DNA of 51,207 nt, taken from contig NZ_JACJSZ010000020.1 of NCBI RefSeq assembly GCF_014698445.1, forward strand, positions 1 through 51,207, given 5' to 3'. The notes beneath the pieces are model-generated. The model did not search any database, was not told the origin of the DNA, and was given only the letters and a program-made list of their open reading frames with translations. This document shows, one piece after another, positions 820-51,207 of the stretch. Within the stretch, counting starts at the first letter, position 1; each line of letters starts with the position of its first letter. The position numbers and the translations under genes are program-made. The stretch is from Microcystis elabens FACHB-917 (GTDB taxonomy: Bacteria; Cyanobacteriota; Cyanobacteriia; PCC-6307; Cyanobiaceae).

Positions 820-960
820 AAGTATGCGCCCCGTGCATAGATCCAAGACTCATGGCCCCAAGTGCTTCTGGTGTGCTGCCACCTCGCTTCCGCTAGGTGC
901 AGACTGGCCGCAGCGTCCCCTCTCCCCCATGACAGTCCCGCCGCTCCAGGCGGTGAAACG

Positions 961-4476
<3,516 letters not shown>

Positions 4477-4479
4477 CCC

Positions 4480-7400
4480 ATGACCAGCGACCACCCCGTC
4501 AAACGCCGCAAAAAGCTGATCGAGGTCGCCATCCCGCTGGAGGCGATCAATGCGGCCTCAGCGCGGGAGAAAAGCATCCGCCATGGGCATCCGAGCACCC
4601 TGCATCTGTGGTGGGCCAGGCGTCCGCTGGCGGCGGCACGGGCGGTGATCTTCTGCCAGATGGTGGACGACCCCTCGGCAGTGCCGGAGGAGTTCCCATC
4701 CGAAGAGGCACAAGAGAACGAGCGGCTGCGGTTGTTTGCCCTGATCAGTGAGCTTGTGCAGTGGGAAAGCACGACCAAGGAGAAGGAGGTTCTCGAGCCA
4801 GCGCGGGAAGAGATTCGCAGAAGCTGGCGTCGATGCTGTGCCGACAATGCCGATCACCCGGAAGCTGCCGAGCTGTTTAACCCGGAGAAGCTGCCTGGTT
4901 TCCACGATCCCTTTGCGGGGGGTGGAGCTTTGCCGCTGGAAGCTCAGCGTCTGGGGCTTGAGAGCTACGCCACTGATCTAAACCCAGTGGCGGTGCTGAT
5001 CAACAAGGCGATGATCGAGATCCCCCCGAAGTTTGCGGGGATGTCGCCGGTAAATCCGGATAGCCGGCGCAACCTTGATGTACGTCAGTGGAGGGGCGCT
5101 CAGGGGCTTGCGGAAGATGTTCGCTACTACGGGCAGTGGATGCGCGATGAGGCCGAGAAGCGAATCGGTCATCTTTACCCGAAGGTAGAGGTGACGGCTG
5201 AGATGGCTAAAGAACGGCCTGATTTGAACCCCTACGTGGGAAAGAAGCTAAATGTGATTGCGTGGATCTGGGCCCGCACAGTGAAGAGCCCCAACCCATC
5301 CTTTGAACAGGTAGATGTCCCTTTGACTTCAACCTTCATGCTCTCCACGAAGGCAGGTAAAGAGGTATACGTAGAGCCAGTAGTTGATGGCGATGCCTAT
5401 CAGTTTATAATTAGGGTAGGCAAGCCGGCAGACAGAAAGAGCTCCAAAGATGGAACAAAGTTCAGTCGTGGTAACTTCCGCTGCCTGATGTCAGGCAATC
5501 CCATATCACCTTCCTATATCAAGTCCGAAGCCTTGTCGGGTCGTATGGGGTCTCGGTTAATGGCAATTGTTGCTGATGGCGCGAGAGGTCGTGTTTACTT
5601 AAATCCAACATACGAGCAGGAGGCCATCGCTAAGGCAGCCCAGCCGTCATGGAAGCCGGACGTGGAGTTTTTCCAGCAGGCACTAGGTTTTCGCGTGGGC
5701 AACTACGGCATGACCCGCTGGAGCGACTTGTTCACTATGCGCCAGTTGACAGCACTCGCAGTTTTCTCGGACCTGACACAGGAAGCGCGCGAGAAAGCAA
5801 AGGCAGATGCCCTTGCCGCAGGGTTAGCCGATGATGACATGCCCTTGCGTGAAGGAGGGGCCGGGTCCTGCGCTTATGGCGATGCGGTCGGTATATACCT
5901 AGGATTTGGAGTGTCGAAGTCAACTGATATGTGTAACTCGTTGTGTGCTTGGGGGCCTACTGACTGGCGCGTAAGACACCTTTTTTCAAGGCAGGCGATC
6001 CCAATGGTATGGGATTTTGCAGAAACCTCTCCGCTCAACGACTCTGCTGGAGCAGTCTATTTTGGTATTGAGTATCTTGCAAAAGCACTTAAGTGCTTTG
6101 ATCCCGTGGCGCCCGGAACCGCATCGCAAGTTGATGCCGCTAGTGATTACGCCCACCGCGGATTAGTTGTCTCGACCGATCCGCCCTACTATGACAATAT
6201 TGGATATGCTGATCTTTCCGACTTCTTTTATGTTCCTGATCAGCAACGAAGCTCCGCAGTGCCAGTTTGCCGTCGTTCAGGGATGCTGACCAGTGCCGCA
6301 TAAGGCCACAAAAGACAGCTTCCGCAGGACATCTGCTTTTATGCGTTAAAAAGCATTAACATGATGCGGAGCTTTGTTGCTGATCAGGTTTATGTTTGGC
6401 TGAGGCGATCATTGAGGCCAGTATTTCCTGATCTGTTTGCAACCCTAACTGTCCCCAAAGCTGAGGAGCTTGTGGCGACTCCCTTTCGCCATGGCGGAAA
6501 GGATGAGGCGGAAACCTTCTTCCTGAGTGGAATGACTATAGCCATGCAACAGATCTCAGGGAAGTCACATCCTGCTTTCCCTGTCACGATATACTATGCT
6601 TTTAAGCAGTCGGAAACAATTTCTTCGGCTGGCACAGCCAGTACTGGATGGGAGACTTTTCTTGCAGCGGTAATCAAGGCAGGTTTTGCCATTGATGGCA
6701 CCTGGCCGATGCGAACTGAGCTGGCTAACCGCATGCGCGGGATGGAATCCAACGCTCTTGCCACCAGCGTCGTGCTCGTGTGCCAGCGGCGGTTGGACTC
6801 GGCGCTCACGATCTCCCGCAACGACTTCCGCCGTCAACTGCGCCAGGAGCTGCCAAAGTCTCTCAAAGAGCTTGAGCGAGCCAACATTGCACCCGTCGAT
6901 GTCGCCCAGGCGGCGATCGGTCCTGGCATTGCGATTTTCAGCAGCGCTAAGGCTGTACTCAATCCTGACGACAGCGCCATGAGCGTTCGGGAAGCCCTGA
7001 TCGAGATCAATGCTGCACTTGACGAGTACCTGTCTCAGGACGAAGGTGAGCTGGATGCCGATAGCCGCTTTGCTCTGACTTTCTTCGAGAGCTTTGGATA
7101 TGCCGAGCGGGAATATGGCGATGCTGAAGGACTTGCCAAGGCGCGCAATCTGTCGGTAGATGGTGTGGCCAGAGCCGGCATCCTGCGATCCGTGGCAGGC
7201 AAGGTGTAGCTACTTCAGCGATCAGAACTCCCAGATGATTGGGATCCCAGTCGAGACAAACGCCTCTGCGCCTGGGAAGCGACTCAGCAGCTAATTAAAC
7301 GATTGGAGGCCGATGGGGAGAGCAGTGCCGCAGCCCTCTTGCTTCAGCTCAAGGGAATCGGAACGCATGGCGACCTTGTGGCCAACTGCCGGGCGCTGGC

Positions 7401-7551
7401 TTATCGCCTTTACAACCACTGTGAGAAGACCAAGCAGGCAGAAGAAGCTCGCTCTTACAACGGCCTGGTGATCGCCTGGCCCGAGCTGGAACGGCAGGCC
7501 TCTGCCGCCGCCAATGCCCAGTCCGCTCCCCACCAGACCAGCCTGATCTGA
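4480..7551 (+). pseudogene. DUF1156 adenine-specific DNA methyltransferase, disrupted by a MITE and an in-frame TAG
   Basis: The N-terminus carries the classic DUF1156 signature ([19 protein letters not shown], then [14 protein letters not shown]). The SAM-binding motif DPFAGGG is at residues 143-149 and the catalytic motif IV DPPY at 567-570, which points to N6-adenine methylation. Just after DFFYV a 154-bp MITE plus one 8-bp target copy (162 bp, 54 codons) interrupts the gene; TAA inside the element at 6301-6303 ends translation. The same frame resumes after it with YVWLRRSLRPVF. A second in-frame TAG at 7207-7209 separates ...AGKV from LLQRSELPDDWD; the C-terminal domain then runs to TGA 7551. 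Without the insert the protein would be about 969 residues, usual for DrmMI-like methylases. The gene follows the helicase by 3 nt and precedes the DUF499 gene by 7 nt. It is almost certainly inactive unless an alternative start rescues a fragment. Confidence 0.88.
6235..6388 (+). mobile_element. MITE copy 1 (154 bp) inside the methyltransferase gene
   Basis: The element is bounded by 24-bp terminal inverted repeats starting CCTGATCAGCAAC with one mismatch between arms, and flanked by a perfect 8-bp target duplication TTTATGTT (6227-6234 and 6389-6396). It has no room for a transposase, so it is a non-autonomous element moved in trans. A second 154-bp copy in inverted orientation lies at 37307-37460; by eye the two differ at about six positions. 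An 8-bp duplication fits several IS families, and the parent transposase is not in this window. Confidence 0.93.
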
Positions 7552-7558
7552 TCCCTCC

Positions 7559-10500
7559 ATGGCTCTCTCCAACCGCGACCGCATTGGCAAAGCGCTTGAA
7601 GTGCTCAGCGCTGCTCTGGCACCCTTCGTCACCCGCGTGCTCGAAAGCTGTGAGGGTCTGGACTGGCAGCAGGGCCTCAAGCCCCATGAATCGATCTCAG
7701 ACGTGCAGCTCCAGCTGAAGCTGATGCGCGATAACTGGGATGCGGCCTTTCGCAAGCAGCTGGATCGTTCCCATCGCTCCTTTGTGTTTGAGCTCACGGA
7801 TGTGCGCAACGACTGGGCCCATCAGAAGACCTTCAGCTCCAACGACACCGACCGAGCACTCGATACCGCCACCCGCCTTTGCCAGGCGATCGCCGCACCC
7901 GAACAACAGCAGGCAATTCAGGAGCTACGGGAAGAGCTGCAGCAGATCGTCTTCGCAGAACGGGCGCGTAACAAGACGCGCTATCAGGCATCTGTCGAGA
8001 ACCAGGTCAAGTCTGGCTTGATCCCCTGGCGGGATGTGATCACTCCCCACCCGGACGTGATCAACGGCCGTTACCAGCAGGCCGAGTTCGCTGCCGATCT
8101 TGATCTGGTGCATCGAGGTATCGGCAGCCCCGAGTACACCGATCCGATCGAGTTCTTCCGCCGCACCTTCATCACCGAGGGTCTCAAAGATCTGCTGCGC
8201 ATCGCCCTTCAGCGCTTCAACGGCCTCGGTGGTGAGCCGGTGATCGAGCTGCAGACCAACTTCGGGGGCGGCAAAACCCACTCAATGCTCAGTGTCTACC
8301 ACCTGGGATCGGGCGTTTCCCTTGCCGACTTGCCAGGCCTGGACCAACTCTGCAGCGAGCTCAATCTTCATTCCGTACCCCGAGCATCCCGGGCTGTGCT
8401 GGTAGGTACCGCCTTCAACCCCTCCAAGATCGACCGCAAGCCCGACGGCACCGAGATACACACCCTTTGGGGGGAACTGGCCTGGCAGCTGGGCGGAGCC
8501 CAGGGCTACGCCCAGATCGCCGAGAGCGACCGCAGCCAGGTGCCACCCGGCGCCCGCGCCCTGGCGGCGCTGTTCAAAGCCCATGGGCCCTGCCTGATCC
8601 TGCTGGATGAGTGGGTCGCCTACGCCCGCAATCTCGTCAGTCCCCGCGAAAGCCTGCCAGCCGGCACCTTTGATGCCCAGCTCTCCTTCGCGCAGCAGCT
8701 CACTGAGGCCACCAAGCAGGTACCAAACGCTCTGCTGCTGATCTCCGTGCCGCAGAGCCGCAATGAGATCGGCGGCAGCGATGGCGAAACCGCTTGCGAC
8801 GGCCTCAAGAACGTCGTCACCCGCCTCGCCTACCAGTGGCGACCAGCGTCCGGCACCGAGAGCTTCGAGATCGTGCGGCGACGCCTGTTTGAGCCGATCA
8901 CCACCAAGGAGGGTGGTGCCCAACGCGATGCCGTGGTGCGCGCCTTCACTGATCAGTACGCCGCGAACAAGGCTGATTTCCCCTCCGAGGTCCGCGAGAG
9001 CGGCTACCGCGACCTGCTCACCTCCGCCTACCCGATTCACCCGGAGCTGTTCAACCGCCTCTACGAGGAGTGGAGCACCCTGGATCGCTTCCAGCGAACC
9101 CGCGGTGTGCTCCGGCTGCTCGCGCTCACGATCGAGGGCCTATGGAACGGCAATAGCCGCGATCTGCTGATCATGCCCAGCTCGATGCCGATCGACGACA
9201 ACGACGTGCGCAATGAGCTGGTGAAGTTCCTCGACAACCAGTGGGAGCCGATCATCGCCACCGACGTTGATGGCGCCCAGTCCGTTCCCACCCAGCTGGA
9301 CCGCGAGAACCCCAACTTCGGCCGCGTCAGCGCCTGCAAGCGGGTGGCCCGCAGCCTCTACATGGGCACCGCCCCCGGTGCCAACCGCGAACGCAAAGGC
9401 ATCAACGACCAGCGGGTGAAGCTCGCCTGCGTCATGCCCGGCGAGCCGATCGCAGTCTTCGGTGATGCGCTGCGGCGCCTCGGTGATCGTGGCCGCTACA
9501 TCCAGCAGGACGGTGACCGCTACTGGATCGACACCAGCCCCAACCTCAACCGCACGGCCGAGGACTACCGCGAGAGCTACCTGCGACAGAGGGAGGAGCT
9601 GCTGGTGGAAGCCAATCGCCTCTTGGTACAGCAAGCCAGCAGCAAAGAGCGCGGAGCTTTCGCAGGCGTCCACAGTGCTCAGCTTGATAGCAGTGGCATC
9701 CCTGATGAGCCGTCCACGCGGCTGGTTCTGCTGGCGGCCCAGTACACCCACAAGACCCGCCGCAAGGACAGCCCTCAGCCAGCTCCGCCATCCCCAGCGC
9801 TGGAGTGGGCGGCTCAGTGCCTACAGAGCAAGGGGAACAGCCCACGGCAGTACGCCAACACCTTGGTGTTCTTGGCGCCTGACCAGGACAATCTCGAGAA
9901 CCTCTTCCAGGCCATTGCAGATCAGCGCGCCTGGCAGAAGGTGATTGATGAAAAGCTGCTGCTGCAAATCACCGTCAATCAGGAAAATCAAGCTGCCGCC
10001 AAGATCCAGGAGGCCACCACGGCGATCGCCGCACGTATCCCCGAGACCTGGTGCCATCTACTGGTCCCTCATCAAAGCCAGCCCGGCAACCAAGGGCCTT
10101 CCTGGGATGAGTTCCGCCTGAGTGCCGGGAGCGAGGGGTTGGTCAAGCGAGCGTCAAGCAAGTGCCAGCAGGAAGAGGCTCTGTACCAGGCGCTGGGTGC
10201 CAGCCGCATCCGCCGCTATCTCGACAACTTCCTCTGGCAGAACCGGGACTCCGTCACCGTGCAGGAGCTGGTGGCTTGGTGCCGCAAGTACCTCTACCTG
10301 CCCCGGGTGAGCACCGACGACGTGATCCTCGAAGGCCTCACCAATGCCCAGGCCGCACTAACCGGTGACAGCACCTTCTATCTGGCCGAAGGCTTCGATG
10401 AGGCCACCGGGAGCTTCCTCGGTCTCAAGCCCCAGGGTCAGTTCCAGAGCGCCGCCACTATGCGGATGCTGATCGTCAAGGACGAGGTGGCCCAGGCGCA

Positions 10501-10939
10501 GCTCGAGGCGGAACAGCGGGCGAAGACCAACGATCCTCGCCCTGGGACAGGAACAGGCAGTGGTAGCGGAACTGGTCCTGGCCTTGGAACTGGCACTAGC
10601 ACCGGAACGGGTATTGGCTCGACCAACACCAACACAGCGGAAGGCACAGGCAAGCCTGACACTGGCGTAAATCCACCGCCGGCGCCACTACCTCCACCGC
10701 CGGCACCACAGCGCACCACCTTCACTGGCTCCCTGAAGCTCGATCCCGTGCGAGCCGGTCTGCAGATGGGCCAGTTCCTGGAGGAGGTAATGAGTCACCT
10801 GCAGGCCCTCCCCGGCGCCGAAGTGAACCTCTCGGTGGAAGTGCACGTCAAAGCCCCCAACGGCATCGACGATCAAACCGCCCGCATCGTCCTACAGAAC
10901 GCCGCAGACCTGAAACTGGACAACCCTCAGGTCTACTGA
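7559..10939 (+). CDS. DUF499 family ATPase with N-terminal HEPN-like domain
   Basis: A 1126-residue cytoplasmic protein. The first ~110 residues resemble a Swt1-type HEPN domain, with R83-NDWA-H88 matching the Rx4H pattern of HEPN RNases. A DUF499 P-loop ATPase follows: Walker A GGGKT around residues 236-240 and Walker B LILLDEW at about 346-352. Near the C-terminus (~993-1050) lies a low-complexity Gly/Thr then Pro linker, followed by a ~75-residue compact tail. DUF499 proteins recur beside DUF1156 methylases and helicases in defence islands, and this order is kept here. Unlike its two upstream partners it is intact. It starts 7 nt after the methylase stop, so it belongs to the same operon. 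Its biochemical role is not established; the HEPN motif suggests RNA cleavage as an effector, which is inference. Confidence 0.88.
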   Translation: MALSNRDRIGKALEVLSAALAPFVTRVLESCEGLDWQQGLKPHESISDVQLQLKLMRDNWDAAFRKQLDRSHRSFVFELTDVRNDWAHQKTFSSNDTDRALDTATRLCQAIAAPEQQQAIQELREELQQIVFAERARNKTRYQASVENQVKSGLIPWRDVITPHPDVINGRYQQAEFAADLDLVHRGIGSPEYTDPIEFFRRTFITEGLKDLLRIALQRFNGLGGEPVIELQTNFGGGKTHSMLSVYHLGSGVSLADLPGLDQLCSELNLHSVPRASRAVLVGTAFNPSKIDRKPDGTEIHTLWGELAWQLGGAQGYAQIAESDRSQVPPGARALAALFKAHGPCLILLDEWVAYARNLVSPRESLPAGTFDAQLSFAQQLTEATKQVPNALLLISVPQSRNEIGGSDGETACDGLKNVVTRLAYQWRPASGTESFEIVRRRLFEPITTKEGGAQRDAVVRAFTDQYAANKADFPSEVRESGYRDLLTSAYPIHPELFNRLYEEWSTLDRFQRTRGVLRLLALTIEGLWNGNSRDLLIMPSSMPIDDNDVRNELVKFLDNQWEPIIATDVDGAQSVPTQLDRENPNFGRVSACKRVARSLYMGTAPGANRERKGINDQRVKLACVMPGEPIAVFGDALRRLGDRGRYIQQDGDRYWIDTSPNLNRTAEDYRESYLRQREELLVEANRLLVQQASSKERGAFAGVHSAQLDSSGIPDEPSTRLVLLAAQYTHKTRRKDSPQPAPPSPALEWAAQCLQSKGNSPRQYANTLVFLAPDQDNLENLFQAIADQRAWQKVIDEKLLLQITVNQENQAAAKIQEATTAIAARIPETWCHLLVPHQSQPGNQGPSWDEFRLSAGSEGLVKRASSKCQQEEALYQALGASRIRRYLDNFLWQNRDSVTVQELVAWCRKYLYLPRVSTDDVILEGLTNAQAALTGDSTFYLAEGFDEATGSFLGLKPQGQFQSAATMRMLIVKDEVAQAQLEAEQRAKTNDPRPGTGTGSGSGTGPGLGTGTSTGTGIGSTNTNTAEGTGKPDTGVNPPPAPLPPPPAPQRTTFTGSLKLDPVRAGLQMGQFLEEVMSHLQALPGAEVNLSVEVHVKAPNGIDDQTARIVLQNAADLKLDNPQVY

Positions 10940-31604: not shown

Positions 31605-32522
31605 TCAGGAAATGGGGGCGATGCTGTGCAGCCGGCCAGCAGCGCGGGGGTGCATGACGCCAAAGCCCACGTACCAATCGATCCGGGTGCGGAACACCGG
31701 GGCATCAGGCACCTCACCCAGATCTCTGACGGAGATGCCGTAGCGACCCTGGAAGGGCCCCTGCAGGCCGGTCACCGCCTGGTCGCCAAAGGTGCAGCAG
31801 TAGATCGAGCTGGTGCCACCGGCTTCTCCGTAGCCAAGAACTTCCAGGCCCTGGGCATCGCGGTCGACGGTGAGGATCTGGCATTCCTGGTAGTGATGCA
31901 CCATCACGCCCAGGTTGTTGGTGCTCACGTTGTAGACGCCCTGGCCGACGGTCTGGCGGGCAAGGGCGTTGAGCTGGCGGCGCATCGCCTTGCTCATCAC
32001 CAGATATTTCCTGCCGCCGTAGGAGTTCACCGAGTCGATCAGCTCATCGAGCTTGTCGAAATCGAGCGCCCCGCCACCGTTGTTCAGCGCCATCTCGCTG
32101 CCCGGCATGAGGCGCTTGGCCAGGCCGTCAAAGCCCCGGCCCTGGCTGGCGGTGGCATCGCCGTTGATCAACGCCGCCTCGAGGGTGAGGCGCATCGAGC
32201 GGACCTTCATCTCGGTCTGCGCCGCCCGGGCCTCAGGGCCCTGCAGGTCGACGATCGAGCGGTCCACATCCACGTCACCCCCAAAGAGGTGCACGGCCTC
32301 GGATTGGGGGTCGACGACGCCATAGCTCTGCTTGTAGCCCTCGTTCACCGCCCGGAAGCCCACCGAGGGGAGCTCCTTCTCGACGGAATAGAAGAGGCCG
32401 CCGCCGGCGATGTTCATGAACGGCAGCCAGCTGAGCAGTTCGCCCTCAGCGAAGGTCTTGATCACCGCCAGGTGCTCCAGGCGGGTCTCGTACTTAGCTG
32501 CCTCGATCAGGGTGAGGCCCAT
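31605..32522 (-). CDS. major capsid protein, HK97-fold type
   Basis: 305 residues. The pattern fits encapsulin/HK97-like capsid proteins of small siphoviruses and podoviruses: an N-arm helix (MGLTLIEAAKYETRLEHLAV), an E-loop-like segment (FYSVEKELPSVGFRAVNEGY), a spine helix (EMKVRSMRLTLEAALINGD), an A-domain with the GGRKYLVMSKAMRRQLNAL stretch and a late TGLQGPFQGRYGISVRDLG strand. It sits downstream of portal and scaffold genes. The CCGGCTATTGCCATGG motif is 39 bp upstream. The Cys pair in SIYCCTFGDQ is noticeable. No protease gene was recognised, so a fused or absent maturation protease is possible. Confidence 0.82.
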   Translation of the reverse strand: MGLTLIEAAKYETRLEHLAVIKTFAEGELLSWLPFMNIAGGGLFYSVEKELPSVGFRAVNEGYKQSYGVVDPQSEAVHLFGGDVDVDRSIVDLQGPEARAAQTEMKVRSMRLTLEAALINGDATASQGRGFDGLAKRLMPGSEMALNNGGGALDFDKLDELIDSVNSYGGRKYLVMSKAMRRQLNALARQTVGQGVYNVSTNNLGVMVHHYQECQILTVDRDAQGLEVLGYGEAGGTSSIYCCTFGDQAVTGLQGPFQGRYGISVRDLGEVPDAPVFRTRIDWYVGFGVMHPRAAGRLHSIAPIS

Positions 32523-32561
32523 CGGTGCTGCACTCCCGGGGTCCGGCCCCAGATCACGTCA

Positions 32562-32577
32562 CCGGCTATTGCCATGG
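32562..32577 (-). promoter_or_regulatory. recurrent phage motif CCATGGCAATAGCCGG, copy upstream of capsid gene
   Basis: Identical over 16 bp to the copy upstream of the fibre gene and 39 bp upstream of the capsid start. It lies in the 128-bp gap between the transglutaminase-like and capsid genes. Confidence 0.5.
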
Positions 32578-32650
32578 ACCAGATCCTTGGGGTGTCGAGC
32601 AGAGTTGGGCTGCTCCGAGCCTCGTTTCGGGCCGCTTGGTCTGCTGGCGT

Positions 32651-33523
32651 TCAGGCCTGCAGTGTCCCGGCCAGCGCGGGCGCGCACCCATCACCAGTGG
32701 GGCCACCTGCGGCAAATGCGCCGACCTCCTCGGTGATGACCTGGAAACCCGTCAGCTCATGCGCCCCGAAGGACCGCAGGAAGGGCACATCGGCAGCATC
32801 GCGGCCACGGCCGATCAACACCCTCCCGCACCGAGGAAAGTTGTGGCGGGCATCAAAGACGTACCAGCGATCCTCCAGGAACACCTCGAACCAGGCCAAG
32901 AAATCCACCGGTGCCTCCCCACGGACGATGCCGGTGTAGCCGAGGTAGCCCGTGCAGTAGCGAGCCGGGATGTTCAGGCAGCGGCAGAGAGTGATCGCCA
33001 GGTGGGCGTAGTCGCGGCAGACCCCAGCACCAGAGTCCACGGACTGACTGGCGCTCTGATGCAGCTGCGAGGCGGAGTAATCAAAGCGGATGCGCTCATG
33101 CACCCAGTCGCAGATGGCCTGCACCAGCGGCCAGCCGGGGGTGATCCCCGCGAAGGTGCTCCAGGCCAGCTCCATCAGCGCTGCGGTGTCGCAGTAGGTG
33201 CTGGCGTTGAGGAAGCGATAGGCGTCGATCGGCAGGGCCTGAATCGGACACTGACGCACATGGGGGAGCACCGGATCAGTACCATCCGGAACCTGAATCG
33301 TGGCGGCGTAGCTGAGGCTGGTGCTGCCCGTGGGGGCCAGAAGACGACACCAGCGGTTGCCTGCCTGATCGGCGAGCACCTCGTAGCTGCGATCGGGGAG
33401 CACCTGCAGCTGTTCCGCCGCGACGAGATCTGGCGCCAGGCTGCTGTGGACATGCACCAGCGCCAGCAGGGGTGTGGCGGGCTCACAACGCAGGTCGAGC
33501 TTGCAACCGATGCTCAGATGCAC
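32651..33523 (-). CDS. transglutaminase-like cysteine protease family protein
   Basis: 290 residues from a GTG start. An N-terminal β-rich domain of the bacterial transglutaminase type (CEPATPLLALVHVHSSLAPD) precedes the transglutaminase-like core: catalytic Cys in GAGVCRDYAHLA, then His in AWFEVFLEDRWYVFDARH and the following Asp. The whole protein resembles ordinary bacterial COG1305 enzymes rather than known virion proteins. It lies directly upstream of the major capsid gene, in the same direction. It may be host-derived cargo (a moron) or be used in capsid or host protein modification; its function in the phage is unknown. Confidence 0.85.
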   Translation of the reverse strand: MHLSIGCKLDLRCEPATPLLALVHVHSSLAPDLVAAEQLQVLPDRSYEVLADQAGNRWCRLLAPTGSTSLSYAATIQVPDGTDPVLPHVRQCPIQALPIDAYRFLNASTYCDTAALMELAWSTFAGITPGWPLVQAICDWVHERIRFDYSASQLHQSASQSVDSGAGVCRDYAHLAITLCRCLNIPARYCTGYLGYTGIVRGEAPVDFLAWFEVFLEDRWYVFDARHNFPRCGRVLIGRGRDAADVPFLRSFGAHELTGFQVITEEVGAFAAGGPTGDGCAPALAGTLQA

Positions 33524-33915
33524 GGGGGCGAGGGTGGCATGGGAGCTGTCTTGATGCTGTTCGAATAAGACGGCGATCGGCAGACCAGTAGGCGTCAGGC
33601 CAGGAAGTCCTGATCAGACGAGGTGGCTGGTTTGCGTTTGCCTGACCGTGCCCGATTGGGCTGCAGATCGAATCGCCGTCGATCTGGGGGCCTGCTTGTC
33701 GTGAGGGCTACTGATGCAACGGCGTCTCCGAACAGGGCACGTCCACCAGCTCCTGAACGGGCTCCGCTCCGGCCCTCCTCATGGTCGGGGGGCGCGTCAA
33801 GGGTGAACCGAGCCCGCCGGTGTGGACGTTGGCTGCGCTGCGCTCCGCATCTCAGTTGTGGACGGGCCCTTGACCCGCCCCCCGCCGGCTGAGGGGTCCT
33901 ACGCGGAGCCCTCCC
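33524..33915. other. intergenic region with hairpin H5
   Basis: 392 bp with no convincing gene. It separates the minus-strand head genes from a short plus-strand insert. It holds the strong inverted repeat at 33787-33883. Confidence 0.5.
33787..33883 (+). repeat. leader hairpin H5
   Basis: The arms of 17 nt, GGGGGGCGCGTCAAGGG (33787-33803) and CCCTTGACCCGCCCCCC (33867-33883), pair with one mismatch. The loop contains GGACGTTGGCTGCGCTGCGC, similar to the loop of H4. It ends 32 bp before the ATG at 33916. Confidence 0.75.
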
Positions 33916-34101
33916 ATGGCCCCTCTGTCCCGCAAAGCTCAGCTGCAGCAGTTCTCCTGGCAGGTGCTGGAAGATCTGGCCTTCTGCAGTGGGCGCTGGC
34001 CACGGCTCGCTGAGCTGGCGGCCCAGGTGCTGTTCGAGCAGCAAGCAGCCGCCCCGGCGGTGCCGGTCGATCCAGAGCTGGAGGCACTGCTGCCCTTCTG
34101 A
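33916..34101 (+). CDS. hypothetical small protein (61 aa)
   Basis: Not recognised. A short helical protein (MAPLSRKAQLQQFSWQVLED, then LAELAAQVLFEQQ) with an acidic end. It is on the plus strand, against the surrounding head genes, and is preceded by hairpin H5 with a 32-bp gap. The start codon context ATGGCC matches the other hairpin-led genes. It is probably a small accessory protein, expressed separately from the minus-strand operon. Confidence 0.55.
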   Translation: MAPLSRKAQLQQFSWQVLEDLAFCSGRWPRLAELAAQVLFEQQAAAPAVPVDPELEALLPF

Positions 34102-34417
34102 GGGCCAGGGCCAGCAGCCGGCGGGGCTCCCCAGGGCCCTGCCTTCCTGCTGGTCGCGACCGCTGGGGGGCGGGGGAAGACCTCAGCAGAGCCAGCGGAC
34201 CTGGCAGCCCACCGATCCACCGGGAGCGGATCAAACGACCGAGCTGGCGGGGTTTCAGCACGCGCGGGGCCGGAAGGCCTCACGGTCGGCGAGGGCCTGA
34301 TCACCGCTGCCCCAGCCGTCTCGCCCTGGCAAGGATCGGGCCAGGCGCCTCTGCGAGGCGTCCTTGCCAGGTCGCTACAGCCGGGGCCTGACGCGGGTGT
34401 CCCTCGCCTCCTTCGTG
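34102..34417. other. intergenic region with hairpin H6
   Basis: 316 bp, GC-rich, without a supported gene on either strand. The only clear structure is the hairpin at 34326-34370. Confidence 0.45.
34326..34370 (+). repeat. leader hairpin H6
   Basis: Perfect 10-bp outer arms, CTGGCAAGGA (34326-34335) / TCCTTGCCAG (34361-34370), and inner CGCCTC / GAGGCG around TGC. It is a close relative of H3. It ends 47 bp before the ATG at 34418. Confidence 0.75.
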
Positions 34418-34630
34418 ATGGCCTCCTTTTCTCCCCGCTGCGAGATCCGCCAGCTAGCGGTGTTCGTCTATCCCGGCGGGATCAAGGCACCCGATGCTGA
34501 GCGCATCACGGTCTTCTATGGCCGCCGCGGCCTGCCGGTCAAAAAGCCCCGCTTCATTCCAGCGAAGCTGGCCCATCAGCTGGCCCGCAAGCTGCAGGCC
34601 AAGCGGCTCGGCACCGTGGCGGTGCTGTGA
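34418..34630 (+). CDS. hypothetical small basic protein (70 aa)
   Basis: Not recognised. The ATG at 34418 is preferred over the upstream open frame, which runs into hairpin H6. The sequence has short strands followed by a basic helix (EIRQLAVFVYPGG, then FIPAKLAHQLARKLQAKRLG), a layout seen in small nucleic-acid-binding proteins. It is the second plus-strand gene of this insert and is followed by a strong GC hairpin terminator. Confidence 0.6.
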   Translation: MASFSPRCEIRQLAVFVYPGGIKAPDAERITVFYGRRGLPVKKPRFIPAKLAHQLARKLQAKRLGTVAVL

Positions 34631-34654
34631 GCCGCCTGGGGCTGCGGCCCCTTG

Positions 34655-34681
34655 CCCCGGCGGGCCTGCGGGCCCCCGGGG
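34655..34681 (+). terminator. GC-rich terminator hairpin
   Basis: The stem CCCCGG-C-GGGCC / GGCCC-C-CCGGGG with a 4-nt loop is followed by CTTTC. It begins 25 bp after the stop at 34630. The interval to 34920 holds nothing else recognisable and is notably A/T-richer after 34730. Confidence 0.7.
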
Positions 34682-34920
34682 CTTTCAGCTGACTCAGCGC
34701 AGCCGGGCAATCAGAATCGTCGCCAGTCGGACTTTGGTTAAGCAATTCCGCCAGGGCTGCCAATGAGGCGTCTATTCAGCAACGAAAGCAGATTTAAGGC
34801 CCTGCTCTCAAAGTAAGCAGAGAAGAGACCGCCTCAGTTTGCACACGGCACTCCGGTTGTTCTTGAGCAATATCTCTCATATGTCATAACAGGAGCAATG
34901 CCGCACTTGCTTGGATTTGC

Positions 34921-35103
34921 TTAGCAGTATTCGGAATTAGGATTGCATTTGACCGCAAGAGCGCAACTAAGTGTGGTGTCACCAAGATCGATCATCTTCG
35001 CTATTGTCTCGCACCGCAACGTCTTGCCAGTGGCGGGGAAGCATAAGAGCGCCATGGCTGCCCATGCAGCTCCTGGTCCAATGGTCAGTGCTAGTGACTT
35101 CAT
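34921..35103 (-). CDS. small putative secreted protein (60 aa)
   Basis: MKSLALTIGPGAAWAAMALLCFP looks like a signal peptide, although GPG in its core is unusual. The mature part would hold four cysteines (CETIAKM, LSCALAVKCNPNSEYC), enough for two disulfides. Its ATG overlaps the stop of the upstream zinc-finger gene as ATGA (35100-35103), which supports it being real. No family is recognised. Confidence 0.5.
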   Translation of the reverse strand: MKSLALTIGPGAAWAAMALLCFPATGKTLRCETIAKMIDLGDTTLSCALAVKCNPNSEYC

Positions 35104-35525
35104 AGAATAATTGCCTGGTTGGGTGTAATTAGCAGGGTAGTGTCATCGGCTGTCTGCAGGGTTTTCGCCTGTTCTTGTTGACCAATGATGGAGCCGCGAG
35201 TCTGTATGCCAGGGTCCGGGGAGATGCTCCATTGGGCCGGCATCTGCGTCCTCGCCCTTCTACAGCGTTGGCTCTGCTGGTGCTGGCGAACCGTCCACTG
35301 GTTCCCCTTGATGGTCATGCCGCAGTGCTCGCAGGTCGTGAGCGGACGGCTCTTGCACCACTGGGCCGGCCGCTCACCCACCAGCTCGCGGCGGCTGGGG
35401 TCGATGCCCCTGCCCTGCTGGTAGCGGGTGAGGGCTGGTGCCGTGGTCACGAAGCCAGTGTCCAGACAGCGAAACAGCAGGGATTGCCCCCGCAGGTTCT
35501 GGACGTTGAAGGTGGTAGCCGTCAT
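35100..35525 (-). CDS. small zinc-finger-like phage protein (141 aa)
   Basis: From the ATG at 35525 (MTATTFNVQNLRGQSLLFRC). The core has CEHCGMTIKGNQWTVRQH, then SQRC, a C-x2-C...H-x(n)-C arrangement that would bind zinc, in an otherwise polar protein. Two palindromes with CCACCA/TGGTGG arms lie 16-62 bp upstream and could be its own operators. It is coupled to the secreted peptide gene downstream by an ATGA overlap. A DNA-binding or regulatory role is inferred from the Cys/His spacing only. Confidence 0.55.
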   Translation of the reverse strand: MTATTFNVQNLRGQSLLFRCLDTGFVTTAPALTRYQQGRGIDPSRRELVGERPAQWCKSRPLTTCEHCGMTIKGNQWTVRQHQQSQRCRRARTQMPAQWSISPDPGIQTRGSIIGQQEQAKTLQTADDTTLLITPNQAIIL

Positions 35526-35540
35526 CAGCGCAGGGTCCGC

Positions 35541-35560
35541 TGCCACCACCGATGGTGGCA
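35541..35560 (-). promoter_or_regulatory. palindrome, candidate operator 1
   Basis: Perfect 8-bp arms TGCCACCA / TGGTGGCA around CCGA, 15 bp upstream of the zinc-finger gene start at 35525. Confidence 0.45.
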
Positions 35561-35574
35561 TGAGCTCCCTATCT

Positions 35575-35587
35575 CCACCACTGGTGG
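35575..35587 (-). promoter_or_regulatory. palindrome, candidate operator 2
   Basis: CCACCA-C-TGGTGG repeats the arms of the palindrome at 35541-35560; the centres are about 30 bp (three helical turns) apart. Confidence 0.4.
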
Positions 35588-35903
35588 CGGGCAGATCAGG
35601 ATGCTGCCACGAGACCCGATCAAGACAGCAGGGCCAGAGGGGGGGATTTCCCAGAGCCTGAAAAATTTCCGAGGCACCCTGCGCCGCTCCTGGAAACAGG
35701 GGGAATACCCCCCCGAGCCTGCGTTCTTCTATGAGGAGCTACGGGGCTCTCCAAGGAGTTGCAGGAAGCTGATTTTGAAACGCAAATTATGAGGAGAATT
35801 CGCGATTTTTTTCGCGTCAGTTTCTCCCCTTTTGAGGTGTTGATCGTTTGGCTGGCTGTGTTTTCTGGGCTCCGGGCAGTTACGGGGTTGATCGGCTTGC
35901 GCG

Positions 35904-36290
35904 TCAGCGGCGGCGAGGTTGTTTGGTTATGCGCTGGCCATGGCGTTCCGCTGCATCCATGCGGCGCGCCAGGCTCGTGGCCCAGCGGCGGCCGGGGTCA
36001 CCGCCCCAGCCGTCCCAGGCCTGACGGCCCTTGCCGTAGGTCTCCCAGCTGGAGCCCTGCTTGTCCACCTCGTGGCGAGCGAAGTAGCTCACCATTCGAT
36101 CGATCGTCTGGGGTGAGAGCTCCTGGCGGTTGAGCAGCTGCCGCGCTCGCGCCAGCCCCACCGGCGTCATGCCCCGATTGGAAGGAGGCTGCTGGGCCCG
36201 GCGCTCCAGGGCACGACGGGCGGCAGCCGCCACCGGCTCCGGAGGTCGGAACGAAAGGCCGGCATAGAAGCTGCGGGGCCGCCGTGTCAT
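35904..36290 (-). CDS. hypothetical phage protein with conserved-looking Trp/Gly motif (128 aa)
   Basis: Not assigned. Arg-rich throughout. The helical middle (VGLARARQLLNRQELSPQT) leads to a distinctive segment, MVSYFARHEVDKQGSSWETYG then AWDGWGGDPGRRWA. Segments of this style occur in phage genes near the portal and scaffold, where they may bind DNA or the head vertex; this is recollection, not proof. It lies 16 bp downstream of the scaffold gene in the same direction. Confidence 0.6.
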   Translation of the reverse strand: MTRRPRSFYAGLSFRPPEPVAAAARRALERRAQQPPSNRGMTPVGLARARQLLNRQELSPQTIDRMVSYFARHEVDKQGSSWETYGKGRQAWDGWGGDPGRRWATSLARRMDAAERHGQRITKQPRRR

Positions 36291-36306
36291 TGAGCTTCCA
36301 GCGGCC

Positions 36307-37173
36307 TCAGCGACGAGCCCCGCGGCCGTTCACCGCGAATGACGCCCGGTAGAGCTCAGACGCCGACATCGCCTGGGGGTTGATCGGTTCGCCGTTGCTG
36401 CCGATGCCCGACACCGTCAAGCCACCAGCGGCCTGCATGCCGGCTGGGCCCCGCTGTTGGAACAGGAAGCCATAGACGGGGTGCACGCGCATCTGATCGA
36501 GAAACTCGGTGGTGGTCATCGGGCGGCCGTCATCGCCCAGCAGGGGTTTGCCCTGGGAGTCGAGCGGTTCGAGCACGTCCTTGCCGTCACCGCCGGTGCT
36601 GAGACGGAAGCAGGTGCCCAGCTGCCCCTTGAAGATGTCGAAGAACGTCCCCCTGGCATCCCCACCGGTGCGGCCCTCGGCCTGGGAGAAAGCACGCTCC
36701 AGCAGGCGGTCCTTGCGCAGCTGCAGGATCTGCTGCTTGGCCTCGTCGCGCTCGGCAGCGACAGCGGCTACCTTCTGGGCCGAGGCTTCCTCCATCTGGC
36801 GCTCGCGCAGCTCCATCTGTTGCTCGAGGATCTGCTTCTGCCGCTCGGCCTCCTGCAGGCGGGCGTACTCCTCGGGGTTGATCTCCGAGAAGCGGTTCAG
36901 CTGTTGCCGCAGGGTGCGGATCTCTTTTTCGAGCTGGTTGCTCTTGCGCCGCTCGGCCCGCAGGGGGTCGGAGCTGCGGTGCTCATCGCCACCAGGCTCA
37001 GCAGCTGCAGCAGATGCCGGGGCCGGGAGATCACCCGCCGTGGTGTCGGCAGTGCCTTGACCATCGGCACCGCTGTCGGTGCTCTGGCCGTTGGCGGCGT
37101 AGTTGTCGTCAGCGCCTTGGCCACCTGTCGTGGCAGTGGTCGCTGTGGTGGAAGCAGAAGTGGCAGTGGCCAT
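36307..37173 (-). CDS. phage scaffold-like protein (coiled coil)
   Basis: 288 residues. The N-terminal ~65 are Ala/Thr/Gly-rich and disordered. Residues ~70-155 form a long charged coiled coil (QLEKEIRTLRQQLNRFSEIN, then RQKQILEQQMELRERQMEEA). The C-terminal part carries a small domain with TTEFLDQMRVHPVYGFLF and ends in basic residues (NGRGARR), as scaffolds do for capsid binding. It sits between portal-side genes and the capsid gene. The GCTATTGCCA motif lies ~50 bp upstream, and MITE copy 2 begins 134 bp upstream of the start. Confidence 0.8.
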   Translation of the reverse strand: MATATSASTTATTATTGGQGADDNYAANGQSTDSGADGQGTADTTAGDLPAPASAAAAEPGGDEHRSSDPLRAERRKSNQLEKEIRTLRQQLNRFSEINPEEYARLQEAERQKQILEQQMELRERQMEEASAQKVAAVAAERDEAKQQILQLRKDRLLERAFSQAEGRTGGDARGTFFDIFKGQLGTCFRLSTGGDGKDVLEPLDSQGKPLLGDDGRPMTTTEFLDQMRVHPVYGFLFQQRGPAGMQAAGGLTVSGIGSNGEPINPQAMSASELYRASFAVNGRGARR

Positions 37174-37223
37174 GACCCATCGCGGCTGTCGTGGATGAGC
37201 ACCCCATCCGGGCTGTGCTCCTC

Positions 37224-37234
37224 AGCTATTGCCA
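37224..37234 (-). promoter_or_regulatory. recurrent motif TGGCAATAGCT upstream of scaffold gene
   Basis: Shares the core GGCAATAGC (minus strand) with the copies upstream of fibre, capsid and portal genes; 51 bp upstream of the scaffold start. Confidence 0.4.
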
Positions 37235-37306
37235 GCCATCGATCTGTGAGGAGACGGCAGCGGAGAGAGAGCGGAAGCCGTGGAGCTGCCTACGGTCAAG
37301 CTCAGA

Positions 37307-37460
37307 CCTGATCAGCAACAAAGCTCCGCATCATGTTATTGCTTTTGAACGCATAAAGGCAGATGTCCTGCGGAAGCTGTCTTTTGTGGCCTTATGCGGC
37401 ACTGGTCGGCATCCCTGAACGACGGCAAATTGTCACTGCGGAGCTTCGTTGCTGATCAGG
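37307..37460 (-). mobile_element. MITE copy 2 (154 bp) in the prophage
   Basis: Same length and ends as copy 1 at 6235-6388 but in inverted orientation; the reverse complement differs at about six of 154 positions. It is flanked by a perfect 8-bp duplication AGCTCAGA (37299-37306 and 37461-37468). It lies in the divergent intergenic region between the scaffold gene and a short secreted-protein gene, and separates the scaffold gene from whatever lay upstream. Confidence 0.93.
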
Positions 37461-37480
37461 AGCTCAGATGCCTGCCTCCG

Positions 37481-37612
37481 GTGAAGCGCCTGCTCTCGAT
37501 TGCGTTGATCGCCGCAGCAGTGCTGGGGGGCGGCGGTGCCATGGCCTGCGAGAAGCACCTCAACGGCCACCAGAACAGCAGCGACACCAACACCGAGGGG
37601 GCAAAGAAGTAG
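37481..37612 (+). CDS. small putative secreted protein or lipoprotein (43 aa)
   Basis: From the GTG at 37481: VKRLLSIALIAAAVLGGGG is a clear signal-peptide-like stretch, then AMACEKHLNG, where the Cys could be a lipobox residue (GAMAC is an imperfect match) or a free Cys. The mature part is short, polar and Asn/Ser/Thr-rich. An open frame extends upstream into the MITE, but that part is element sequence. The gene is on the plus strand against its neighbours, 20 bp after the MITE end, so the MITE has probably replaced or modified its upstream control DNA. Confidence 0.5.
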   Translation: MKRLLSIALIAAAVLGGGGAMACEKHLNGHQNSSDTNTEGAKK

Positions 37613-37638
37613 GGCCTCCCTCCTTCTGAGCAGTTGAG

Positions 37639-38538
37639 TCAGCCCCGCGAGAGCTCCAGCTGCCTGGCCAGCCACAGCTCCACGTCCTCGTAGGTGTAGC
37701 GGACGAGGTTGCCCAGCTTCACGAAGGGTGGGCCGTAGCCGCTGGAGTTCCAGCTGTAGATGGTGGAGAGCGACACCCCCAGGTAGGTGGCCAGGGTTTC
37801 GGGTGAGTAGAAGCCGGCCGGCAAGCTGGTGGTGCTGGTGTCGGCGTTAGCGGCGGCGCGGCGCTTGGGCAGGAACAGCCAGCTCCCCAGCGGCAACTGG
37901 TCGGATGGGCGGGCAGTGATGGTGGGGTTGAGGCTGCGCAGGGTGGTGACGGTGGTGCCGTGGCGCTCGGCCAGCACGTTGAGGCTGTCGCCGGTGCCGA
38001 CCACCGCCACGCGGTTGGGCTTGAGCGCGGCCTGGATCCGTTCGCCCAGCAGCGGTTGGGTGAGGGAGCCGATGCCACCGGCGCCGTAGAGCCCTCCGAA
38101 TTCCGTCACTGAGAACGCCGCCAGCTGCCCCCGGCTTGGAGATGGGAGCAGGCCGGGGGTGCGCAGTTCCATGAGCGGCCCGAGCCACACCGCCCCGAAA
38201 CAGGGGGTGAGGAGCGCCGGGGTCGTGGCGGAGACGGGCCGGATGCCGCTGGTGCTCCAGGCGATGTGCGTGGCCAACCAGTCCCAGGGTTGGGACGGTG
38301 TCAGCGGCAGCACCGCCCCGCGGGTGAGGTAGCCCTCGTAGGTGAAGTCCCCCGTATCGAGCCCCGGGGCGTTCTCCTTGCTGGAGATCCCCCGCAGGCG
38401 CTTGAGGAACCCCTCGAATATGAACCTCCCCGTGCGCTGTGAATCCAGAACGCCGGGAATGGCATTGGAGAAGAGCAGGATGCGGGCGTTGGCGTATGGC
38501 TGCAGCGCCGAAGGCGGCAGCACAGGGGTGCTCGTCAC
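37639..38538 (-). CDS. phage protein with LysM domain and C-terminal excisionase-type HTH
   Basis: 299 residues from a GTG start. Residues ~1-175 are a structural-looking domain with no recognised family. Residues ~182-225 are a LysM repeat (VGTGDSLNVLAERHGTTVTT, then LNPTI and GSWLFLP). Residues ~243-295 match the HTH_17/excisionase fold: YSPETLATYLGVSLSTIYSW, then PFVKLGNLVRYTYEDVELWL. A peptidoglycan-binding module joined to a DNA-binding module in one polypeptide is unusual. The gene overlaps nothing and ends 3 bp before the 172-aa gene begins the series from the portal. The domain calls are strong, the combined role unclear. Confidence 0.8.
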   Translation of the reverse strand: MTSTPVLPPSALQPYANARILLFSNAIPGVLDSQRTGRFIFEGFLKRLRGISSKENAPGLDTGDFTYEGYLTRGAVLPLTPSQPWDWLATHIAWSTSGIRPVSATTPALLTPCFGAVWLGPLMELRTPGLLPSPSRGQLAAFSVTEFGGLYGAGGIGSLTQPLLGERIQAALKPNRVAVVGTGDSLNVLAERHGTTVTTLRSLNPTITARPSDQLPLGSWLFLPKRRAAANADTSTTSLPAGFYSPETLATYLGVSLSTIYSWNSSGYGPPFVKLGNLVRYTYEDVELWLARQLELSRG

Positions 38539-38541
38539 GGT

Positions 38542-39060
38542 TCAGCCCCGCTCCAGCGCCGCCGTAAAGCCACCGCCGTTGCCGCTCAACTGCGGGTCGC
38601 GGCTCCAGTTCGCCAGGGTGGGGAGCATCAGCAACAGGGCCTGGGCATGGCTGCCCCGCTGCCGTCGCAACGCCTGCTCAATCGAGAGACCTTCGCCGAA
38701 GCGGGTGGTGACCTCCTCCCGCAGCAGCTCGGTGTCGTACTCGATCACGTCCGCCTTCCTGACCGGAAGCGAGCCGTCCTCAGGGAGGGCATCGGCGGCC
38801 ACGGCCTTGCGACGGGTCTCGACCGGCGCCTGCAGCTGCTCAGGGCCCAGCCCCGCCAGCTCGGTGTCGATGGCGGCGATGGCATCGAGCTCGCGGCGGG
38901 CTGTGGGGATGGCATCGGGGTAGAGCTGCTCGAGATCCGCCATGGCGTCGTTGATGGCACGAATCGCGGCCATCAGGGCCGGAATCGAGAGGGCGACGCG
39001 AATCCCCTCCAGGTCAGCAGCCCGCCAGCGGTAGGGCGAGTCGGTGGGGGTATGGCTCAT
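38542..39060 (-). CDS. hypothetical phage protein (172 aa)
   Basis: Not recognised. A helical, acidic protein (IPALMAAIRAINDAMADLEQ; YDTELLREEVTTRFGEGLS) between portal and LysM/HTH genes, which is the usual place of head-tail connector or head-completion proteins. Its ATG overlaps the portal stop (ATGA at 39057-39060), so it is translated together with the portal. Function inferred from position only. Confidence 0.65.
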   Translation of the reverse strand: MSHTPTDSPYRWRAADLEGIRVALSIPALMAAIRAINDAMADLEQLYPDAIPTARRELDAIAAIDTELAGLGPEQLQAPVETRRKAVAADALPEDGSLPVRKADVIEYDTELLREEVTTRFGEGLSIEQALRRQRGSHAQALLLMLPTLANWSRDPQLSGNGGGFTAALERG

Positions 39061-50080: not shown

Positions 50081-50288
50081 CGAGCCCCTGGCGCTGGCGG
50101 GGCTTGCTGGCGAGCTGCTCGCGTTCCATCGCCTCGGCCACGATCAGCCTGATCACCGAGGAACGCGAGAGCACACCGCCCCGGGTGCGCGCATCCAGCC
50201 AGTCCCGCTGCTCAAGCGTGAACTGCACGGAGAGCGGGGTCATCATCGAGGGCATGGAAACCTCGGCATGGCGAATCAGCTTATTCAT
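50067..50288 (-). CDS. ribbon-helix-helix regulator (CopG/Arc-like, 73 aa)
   Basis: PLSVQFTLEQRDWLDARTRG forms the ribbon and first helix, and SRSSVIRLIVAEAMEREQL the second helix, a standard RHH fold. The end overlaps the primase start by 14 bp. It is the first minus-strand gene, with only 43 bp to the divergent DUF2786 gene, so it probably controls one or both of these promoters. Confidence 0.78.
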   Translation of the reverse strand: MNKLIRHAEVSMPSMMTPLSVQFTLEQRDWLDARTRGGVLSRSSVIRLIVAEAMEREQLASKPRQRQGLDGQR

Positions 50289-50331
50289 GCTGGCACAGAC
50301 TCGCTAAGCTGATCCGGTTGGCGAATAGGGC
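50289..50331. promoter_or_regulatory. divergent control region of the early genes
   Basis: Only 43 bp lie between the start codons of the RHH regulator (minus) and the DUF2786 gene (plus). Promoters must therefore overlap each other or lie inside the coding sequences; no clear -10/-35 pair could be fixed by eye. Confidence 0.4.
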
Positions 50332-51182: not shown

Positions 51183-51207
51183 AGCAGGCACGTCAGCAGT
51201 TCATGGT

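What the first reader, a model, noticed from the sequence alone, without database searches (positions are those of the whole stretch)
6227..6396. MITE inserted in the catalytic region of a defence DNA methyltransferase
A 154-bp element with 24-bp inverted ends and a perfect 8-bp target duplication (TTTATGTT) sits a few residues after the DPPY motif. Element plus one target copy is 162 bp, a multiple of three, so the reading frame returns after the insert and only an internal TAA (6301-6303) breaks the gene. Read across the two flanks, DFFYV continues directly into WLRRSL.
Basis: seen in the sequence. Interest (0 to 1): 0.82.

Follow-up and report, generated by a model that had tools for sequence, protein, structure and literature searches.

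The report
Jumping element breaks a defence methylase
A 154-letter non-coding mobile DNA element has landed in the DNA-methylating gene of a bacterial anti-phage system and broken it, and copies of it and of its larger relative lie in several other DNA-methylating defence genes of the same genome.

Summary
A 154-bp element (6235-6388) with 24-bp inverted ends (23 of 24 matched) and a perfect 8-bp target duplication interrupts a DUF1156 methylase, 15 codons after DPPY. Aligned homologues are uninterrupted there (DFFYV|WLRRSL or close variants). The gene is hmaB of an Hma (helicase-methylase-ATPase) system.

The genome holds 14 copies, all exactly 154 bp, 11 with perfect 8-bp duplications. It also holds an IS with the same outer ends (14 sites; 8 paired by 8-bp duplications; not assembled full length). 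An intact 1051-bp relative elsewhere encodes an IS1595-family transposase. The MITE interior was found in no other genome, plasmid or phage searched.

hmaB has a second in-frame stop (TAG 7207-7209) and hmaA has one (TAG 1630-1632), so the system is broken in two genes. And 7 of 28 MITE/IS sites lie in, or in one case adjoin, DNA-methylation genes: hmaB, two hsdS, hsdM, type IIG, two DrmMI-like.

Best reading: a recent IS1595-driven MITE burst that also inactivated R-M-like genes. Selection is possible, but AT-rich or dispensable target DNA explains the bias at least as well. IS and MITE inactivation of defence genes is already published for CRISPR-Cas.

The parts
6235..6388 (+). 154-bp MITE
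   Evidence: the repeat finder; 14 copies in the genome
6235..6258 (+). left terminal inverted repeat (24 bp, 23/24 matched)
6365..6388 (+). right terminal inverted repeat
6227..6234 (.). target duplication TTTATGTT, left
6389..6396 (.). target duplication TTTATGTT, right
6301..6303 (+). in-frame TAA inside the MITE; ends the 607-codon N-terminal reading frame; present in all 14 copies
6361..6363 (+). ATG inside the MITE that opens the downstream reading frame 6361-7209
4480..7551 (+). hmaB (DUF1156 DNA methylase of an Hma system), interrupted
   Evidence: PADLOC HmaB, Pfam DUF1156; alignments
6178..6189 (+). DPPY motif of HmaB
   Evidence: columns invariant in 7 homologue copies; its catalytic role is recalled
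961..4476 (+). hmaA (SNF2-type helicase with NOV_C C-terminus); start codon at 961 is my choice, the frame is open from 862
1630..1632 (+). in-frame TAG in hmaA (E in six of six homologues)
7559..10939 (+). hmaC (HEPN_Swt1 + DUF499 ATPase), open reading frame intact
37307..37460 (-). second copy of the MITE in the window, with its own 8-bp duplication (AGCTCAGA)

Best explanation
The element is a non-autonomous relative (MITE) of an IS1595-family insertion sequence. The IS transposase recognises the shared ends (CCTGATCAGCAAC...) and inserts the MITE with an 8-bp duplication; this step is inferred from shared ends and duplication length and was not assayed. Here it landed in hmaB, 15 codons after the DPPY motif. 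Translation of hmaB now stops after 585 native codons plus 22 MITE-encoded ones, so about 384 residues are lost (shown from the sequence). That this ends methylation is inferred. With the second stop in hmaB and the stop in hmaA, the Hma system is most likely inactive. The MITE/IS burst is recent and spread over the genome, and it also lies in other methylation genes (two hsdS, one hsdM, one type IIG, two DrmMI-like). In type I, type IIG and BREX-like systems the M or S part is also needed for restriction (recalled), so its loss would silence the system without self-attack; for Hma this is inference.
For: 14 copies, all 154 bp; 11 with perfect 8-bp duplications. Five copies are identical to one another, two more are identical to each other, and the hmaB copy is identical to one on contig C72. 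An IS with the same 13-nt outer ends is in the same genome: 23 isolated ends, of which eight left/right pairs share an 8-bp duplication. An intact 1051-bp relative in G275 is 84-85% identical at its two ends, has its own TCGCTAGA duplication, and encodes Pfam DDE_Tnp_IS1595 (E 1.3e-31) and Zn_ribbon_IS1595 (E 3.8e-15). HmaB profile hits on both halves. Homologues are uninterrupted at the site. Recency of decay: dN/dS of hmaA against G126 is about 0.04 downstream of its stop and 0.03 upstream. Seven sites in or next to methylation genes.
Against: No full-length IS is assembled in this genome; about 926 of ~1051 bp are seen as two ends, so an active transposase here is inferred. No strain of the same species without the insertion was available. 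The MITE interior does not resemble the IS interior, so it is not a simple internal deletion of this IS. Three of 14 copies lack a perfect duplication: one at a contig end, one with 7 of 8 bases matched, one with unrelated flanks. The dN/dS figures come from one pair of genomes and would not show a short period of decay.
Confidence: 0.88

Rival explanations
1. The insertion split hmaB into two working genes: the MITE gives a stop for the first half and a start (ATG 6361) for the second, and the two halves assemble into a working methylase.
For: ORF 4480-6303 keeps the glycine-rich stretch, the variable region and DPPY; ORF 6361-7209 starts inside the MITE in frame.
Against: The second half is itself cut by TAG 7207-7209, removing about 114 residues, and hmaA has a stop. 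The split lies close behind the DPPY motif. No clear ribosome-binding site precedes the ATG (by eye).
Confidence: 0.05
2. (Rival for the wider pattern only.) The excess of insertions in methylation genes is not selected: the element prefers AT-rich DNA, or survives only in dispensable foreign islands, and R-M genes are both.
For: Site GC median 0.58 against 0.71 in a 160-kb sample; all 28 sites are at or below 0.69; six of the seven methylation-gene sites are below 0.58. A related IS in G257 also hits defence genes: 3 of its 17 sites match PADLOC models, DrmMI, HEC-01A and HEC-01B, so the bias is not special to methylation genes or to this genome.
Against: 15 of 28 sites have GC of 0.58 or more, so AT-rich DNA is not required. 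None of the sites was found in one of the 8 HsdR genes detected, though P is only 0.08. The GC sample leans to core DNA; the window itself has a median of 0.665.
Confidence: 0.65
3. The element is a protein-level insert that is tolerated in frame (like Rickettsia palindromic elements; recalled).
For: Length plus duplication is 162 bp, a multiple of three, in all 11 copies with a perfect duplication.
Against: In the hmaB frame every one of 14 copies carries the same TAA, and no frame of any copy is free of stops. Nine of 14 copies are not in an assigned gene.
Confidence: 0.02
4. Assembly artefact.
For: Draft genome in 121 contigs with many breaks at repeats.
Against: A perfect duplication on both sides and empty-site continuity with homologues.
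Confidence: 0.02

Closest known systems
IS1595 family and its MITEs
   Same: Transposase domains Zn_ribbon_IS1595 and DDE_Tnp_IS1595 in the relative with near-identical ends; 8-bp duplications
   Different: The MITE interior has no match in the other genomes and collections searched. ISfinder was not available, so an earlier name for the element is not excluded
Hma system (PADLOC, PMC8565338, passages read), regrouped as type-1 DUF499-centred BREX-related system (PMC12839542, passages and section 29 read)
   Same: HmaA-HmaB-HmaC order and profiles; HEPN-DUF499 fusion
   Different: hmaA and hmaB are both broken here. The two papers differ on the chemistry: the first calls HmaB an m5C methylase, the second an N6-adenine methylase
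IS and MITE transposition into cas genes (PMC10359306, passages read)
   Same: Mobile elements, MITEs included, inactivate a defence system
   Different: There cas genes; here Hma, type I, type IIG and DrmMI-like methylation genes, several in one genome by one element family
MITE-caused pseudogenes and disrupted R-M genes in Anabaena sp. 90 (PMC3542288, passages read)
   Same: MITEs in ORFs (15 of 147) and 13 disrupted R-M genes in a cyanobacterium
   Different: Those MITEs had no IS with matching ends; the passages read draw no link between MITEs and R-M genes

Membership tests
MITE | short, non-coding, no transposase | tested here: met
   154 bp, stops in all six frames of all 14 copies
MITE | terminal inverted repeats and target duplications | tested here: met
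   (11 of 14 perfect)
MITE | multiple dispersed copies | tested here: met
   14 copies
MITE | ends shared with an autonomous IS in the same genome | tested here: inconclusive
   ends are shared, but the IS is not assembled full length in this genome, so its autonomy rests on the relative in G275
MITE | mobilised in trans by that IS | not testable with these tools
   needs a transposition assay
IS1595 family (parent IS) | IS1595-type DDE transposase with N-terminal zinc ribbon | tested here: met
   relative G275:C163:228-1278; in the own genome only partial DDE matches at the IS ends (C110, C32, C118)
IS1595 family (parent IS) | 8-bp target duplication (recalled as typical) | tested here: met
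Hma / type-1 BREX-related system | HmaA, HmaB and HmaC adjacent | tested here: met
Hma / type-1 BREX-related system | all three genes intact | tested here: not met
   hmaA TAG; hmaB MITE and TAG; hmaC open: a decayed Hma locus

The most novel reading that the evidence does not exclude
A recent IS1595/MITE burst has selectively switched off methylation-dependent defences in one genome by hitting the methylase or specificity part, whose loss silences restriction and modification together without self-harm. Seven of 28 sites are in or next to such genes and none was found in the HsdR genes detected. Recurrent hmaB loss in relatives, with hmaA and hmaC open in one case (G059), would then mean that HmaB is needed for Hma restriction and not only for self-protection. 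(Odds lowered from 0.25 to 0.2, which shows a related IS hitting defence genes of other kinds.)
Probability: 0.2. Interest if true: 0.62.

Novelty: new member of a known kind. Interest (0 to 1): 0.45.

Why it matters
It is a clean case of a MITE inactivating an Hma methylase, with a perfect target duplication and uninterrupted relatives, and it leads to a genome in which one IS/MITE family lies in or next to seven DNA-methylation genes of several kinds of defence system. It offers a natural test of whether losing the methylase part of Hma is safe, which bears on how Hma restricts phage. The principle that IS and MITEs inactivate defence is already published for CRISPR-Cas (PMC10359306).

Tried and rejected
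MITE as an in-frame coding element: rejected, the TAA is in all 14 copies.

IS66 as the parent: an end on contig C34 looked like an IS66 end, but it is a 46-bp remnant of the IS1595-type end abutting an IS66-like element.

TAG read as sense: not supported. TAG ends 15 of the 127 sampled genes with a visible stop; suppressor tRNAs were not searched.

MITE on phages or plasmids: no match in either collection. The one viral-contig hit is the window itself, 31693-39384.

An excess of one-stop reading frames across interrupted genes was looked at and dropped: four of the six frames of the MITE carry a single stop in at least some copies.

Structure prediction of HmaB was not run, as it would not decide anything.

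Limits kept in view. The C52 site shows only the 3' end of a DrmMI-like gene, its other flank being unidentified; the C77 and C41 genes were also seen on one flank only. For the C104 side of the hsdM site the C-terminal piece had no Pfam match, and continuity there rests on my recall of HsdM sequences. Sites without an assigned gene (C50b, C68, C120 among them) were counted as outside methylation genes. The 1.6% denominator is a lower bound: only Methylase_S, N6_Mtase and DrmMI profiles were searched in the own genome, so type II, type III and some type IIG methylases are missing. The 160-kb sample for GC and for the PADLOC null was chosen by hand in contig interiors and leans to core DNA. For the control genomes I gave PADLOC 10 of the 15 coding pieces printed for G257 and G243, some cut at 400 residues.

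Full report
OBSERVATION. The element is real and placed as described: 154 bp at 6235-6388, 24-nt inverted ends with 23 of 24 positions matched, and TTTATGTT at 6227-6234 and 6389-6396. A search of the window's own genome (3,678,223 bases, 121 contigs) found 14 near-full copies at 94-100% identity, two of them in the window. All 14 are exactly 154 bp and 11 of 14 have perfect 8-bp duplications. Five copies are identical to one another, two more to each other, and the hmaB copy is identical to the one on contig C72. As single-stranded RNA the element folds far better than shuffles (-70 against -43.5 kcal/mol, z -6.9), as expected from its inverted ends.

ORGANISM. 

HOST GENE. PADLOC profiles identify HmaA, HmaB and HmaC in order; Pfam gives DUF1156 in HmaB and HEPN_Swt1 plus DUF499 in HmaC. 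Both halves of hmaB match the HmaB profile, at positions 3-592 and 587-861 of 967. The insertion site is continuous in homologues: DFFYV|WLRRSL or close variants in five homologues and in seven HmaB copies from six genomes (three of the genomes are shared between the calls). In one search the minus-strand loci were mis-oriented and gave no information, and that script ended with an error after printing the alignments; one search corrected this. The DPPY tetrad (567-570) lies 15 residues before the break. A glycine-rich [12 protein letters not shown] stretch comes well before it with a variable region between. A published analysis places the target-recognition insert of these methylases after core strand 2 and describes three C-terminal HTH-like domains (PMC12839542, section 29 read), which the truncation would remove. 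That paper calls the enzyme an N6-adenine methylase; the paper that named Hma calls it m5C (PMC8565338, passages read); PADLOC's model says DNA-adenine methylase.

hmaB carries a second in-frame stop, TAG 7207-7209 (K, R or Q in seven homologue copies), and hmaA a stop, TAG 1630-1632 (E in six of six). The region of hmaA after its stop is about as constrained as the region before it (dN/dS 0.04 and 0.03, window against G126), so the decay looks recent. The locus is a mosaic: HmaA is 97.4% identical to that of G126, a different genus, but HmaB 79% and HmaC 65%, and DNA identity falls inside hmaB after about 5250.

PARENT ELEMENT. Twenty-three isolated copies of the ends were found, 22 of them near contig ends. 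They form a left end (315 to 559 bp of contig seen) and a right end (101 to 467 bp seen) of one IS broken by the assembler; the longest left copy is itself entered by IS66-like sequence at about position 459. Eight left/right pairs share an 8-bp duplication, leaving 14 IS sites plus one remnant on C34. A complete relative, 1051 bp with an 8-bp duplication TCGCTAGA, is in G275; its protein matches Zn_ribbon_IS1595 and DDE_Tnp_IS1595. The MITE shares the outer ends but not the interior.

DISTRIBUTION. In 42 genomes of the genus only the own genome has the MITE; six others match at the ends only. The MITE interior matched 1 of 251 genomes of the family, the own one; that search listed only 3 of the 14 own copies, so its sensitivity is limited. 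An exact 34-base interior pattern matched nothing in genome contigs and one viral contig that is the window itself. No match in plasmids or phages. The tools warn that records of the own genome or very near ones may be left out of the named collections.

WIDER PATTERN. I examined the coding frames touching all 14 MITE and 14 IS sites. Seven are in or next to DNA-methylation genes. MITE: hmaB; a type IIG enzyme on C112 (profile positions 839-1294 and 1309-1574 on the two sides); hsdS on C100. IS: hsdS on C42/C110; hsdM on C106/C104; a DrmMI-like gene on C86/C24 (positions 555-1075 and 1075-1332); the 3' end of another DrmMI-like gene on C52 (other flank unknown). Six other genes are interrupted or adjoined: alcohol dehydrogenase (C65), IS66-like transposase (C50; by eye), DnaJ-like (C65/C85), an acyltransferase (C41), an AAA_25 protein (C116) and a HATPase_c_4 protein (C77; weak pAgo-type PADLOC match, E 5.7e-14). 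So 7 of 13 genes hit are methylation genes; the other sites look intergenic or unassigned.

HOW STRONG IS IT. About thirty such genes or fragments found by profile (plus hmaB) sum to about 58 kb, 1.6% of the genome, a lower bound because other methylase families were not searched. None of 137 genes in a hand-picked 160-kb sample matched an R-M profile at E 1e-20. As a control, related IS copies in G257 (17 sites) and G243 (7 ends) hit one methylation gene in 24, a DrmMI-like one: Fisher P 0.042, or 0.069 without hmaB. But two further G257 sites lie in the candidate defence genes HEC-01A and HEC-01B, so 3 of 24 control sites are in defence genes, and the bias may be towards defence islands in general. 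Site GC is low too: median 0.58, all 28 sites at or below 0.69, against a sample median of 0.71. I therefore do not claim selection.

HMAB LOSS IN RELATIVES. Of 251 family genomes, 21 have a clear hmaB homologue (E below 1e-30 to the N-terminal 585 residues). By my reading, ten are intact (G126, G049, G051, G031, G002, G193, G195, G149, G008, G124). Six are broken: the own genome; G072, by an insertion with a DDE transposase (Pfam DDE_Tnp_1_2 and DUF772); G103, a MAG contig, by an internal stop; and G148, G243 and G059, where the first ~180 codons are followed by an HNH_2 gene, with a C-terminal hmaB piece left in G243 only. Five cannot be read because of contig ends or fragments (G250, G171, G133, G209, G159). 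In G059, hmaA and hmaC align without stops, which suggests that loss of HmaB alone is tolerated.

LITERATURE. Hma was named from PADLOC work (PMC8565338, passages read) and later regrouped as a type-1 DUF499-centred BREX-related system with an RM-like mechanism proposed (PMC12839542, passages and section 29 read). IS and MITE insertions that inactivate cas genes are described (PMC10359306, passages read). Anabaena sp. 90 has MITE-made pseudogenes and disrupted R-M genes (PMC3542288, passages read). My searches for MITE or IS insertions in R-M, hsdS or Hma genes, and for IS1595 MITEs in cyanobacteria, showed nothing closer in their listings; only the four papers named were opened, and subscription journals are mostly not in the library.

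VERDICT. The finding is right in substance and ordinary in kind; the hits on methylation genes across the genome raise its interest somewhat.

Noticed in passing
G148:C18 (L131 5299-7008), G243:C51 (L132), G059:C57 (L135 6388-8643): hmaB keeps its first ~180 codons (...INKAMIE) and is followed there by an HNH_2 endonuclease gene; by eye the upstream junction is at the same codon in three genomes while the downstream extent of loss differs.
   Followed up: partly
G072:C1, L128 6460-8170: hmaB of another genome is interrupted at about codon 253 by a ~1.7-kb insertion carrying a DDE transposase (DDE_Tnp_1_2 and DUF772).
   Followed up: partly
window 10982-51182: By offset (assuming it is colinear), an IMG/VR viral contig covers this stretch, starting just after hmaC. 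It carries endolysin, tail fibre, portal and terminase matches, so a prophage lies next to the broken Hma system; the second MITE copy (37307-37460) sits in it, between ORFs.
   Followed up: partly
G000:C116 (L031 1-3519) and window 47667-51207: Contig C116 is 92% identical to the end of the window's prophage, and its AAA_25 gene carries an IS1595-type insertion: a second related prophage in the genome, hit by the same IS.
   Followed up: partly
window 950-5250 against L121 (G126): hmaA (~93%) and the start of hmaB (~88%) are close in DNA to a genome of another genus, then identity falls sharply inside hmaB: a recombination mosaic.
   Followed up: partly
G000, contigs C33, C34, C46, C54, C56, C78, C83, C100, C106, C110: The genome carries about ten type I R-M systems (11 strong N6_Mtase genes, 8 HSDR_N matches); hsdM on C46 also looks frameshifted.
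   Followed up: partly
G257:C56 (L231), C40 (L233), C38 (L242): A related IS in another genome of the genus lies in a DrmMI-like gene and in HEC-01A and HEC-01B candidate defence genes.
   Followed up: partly
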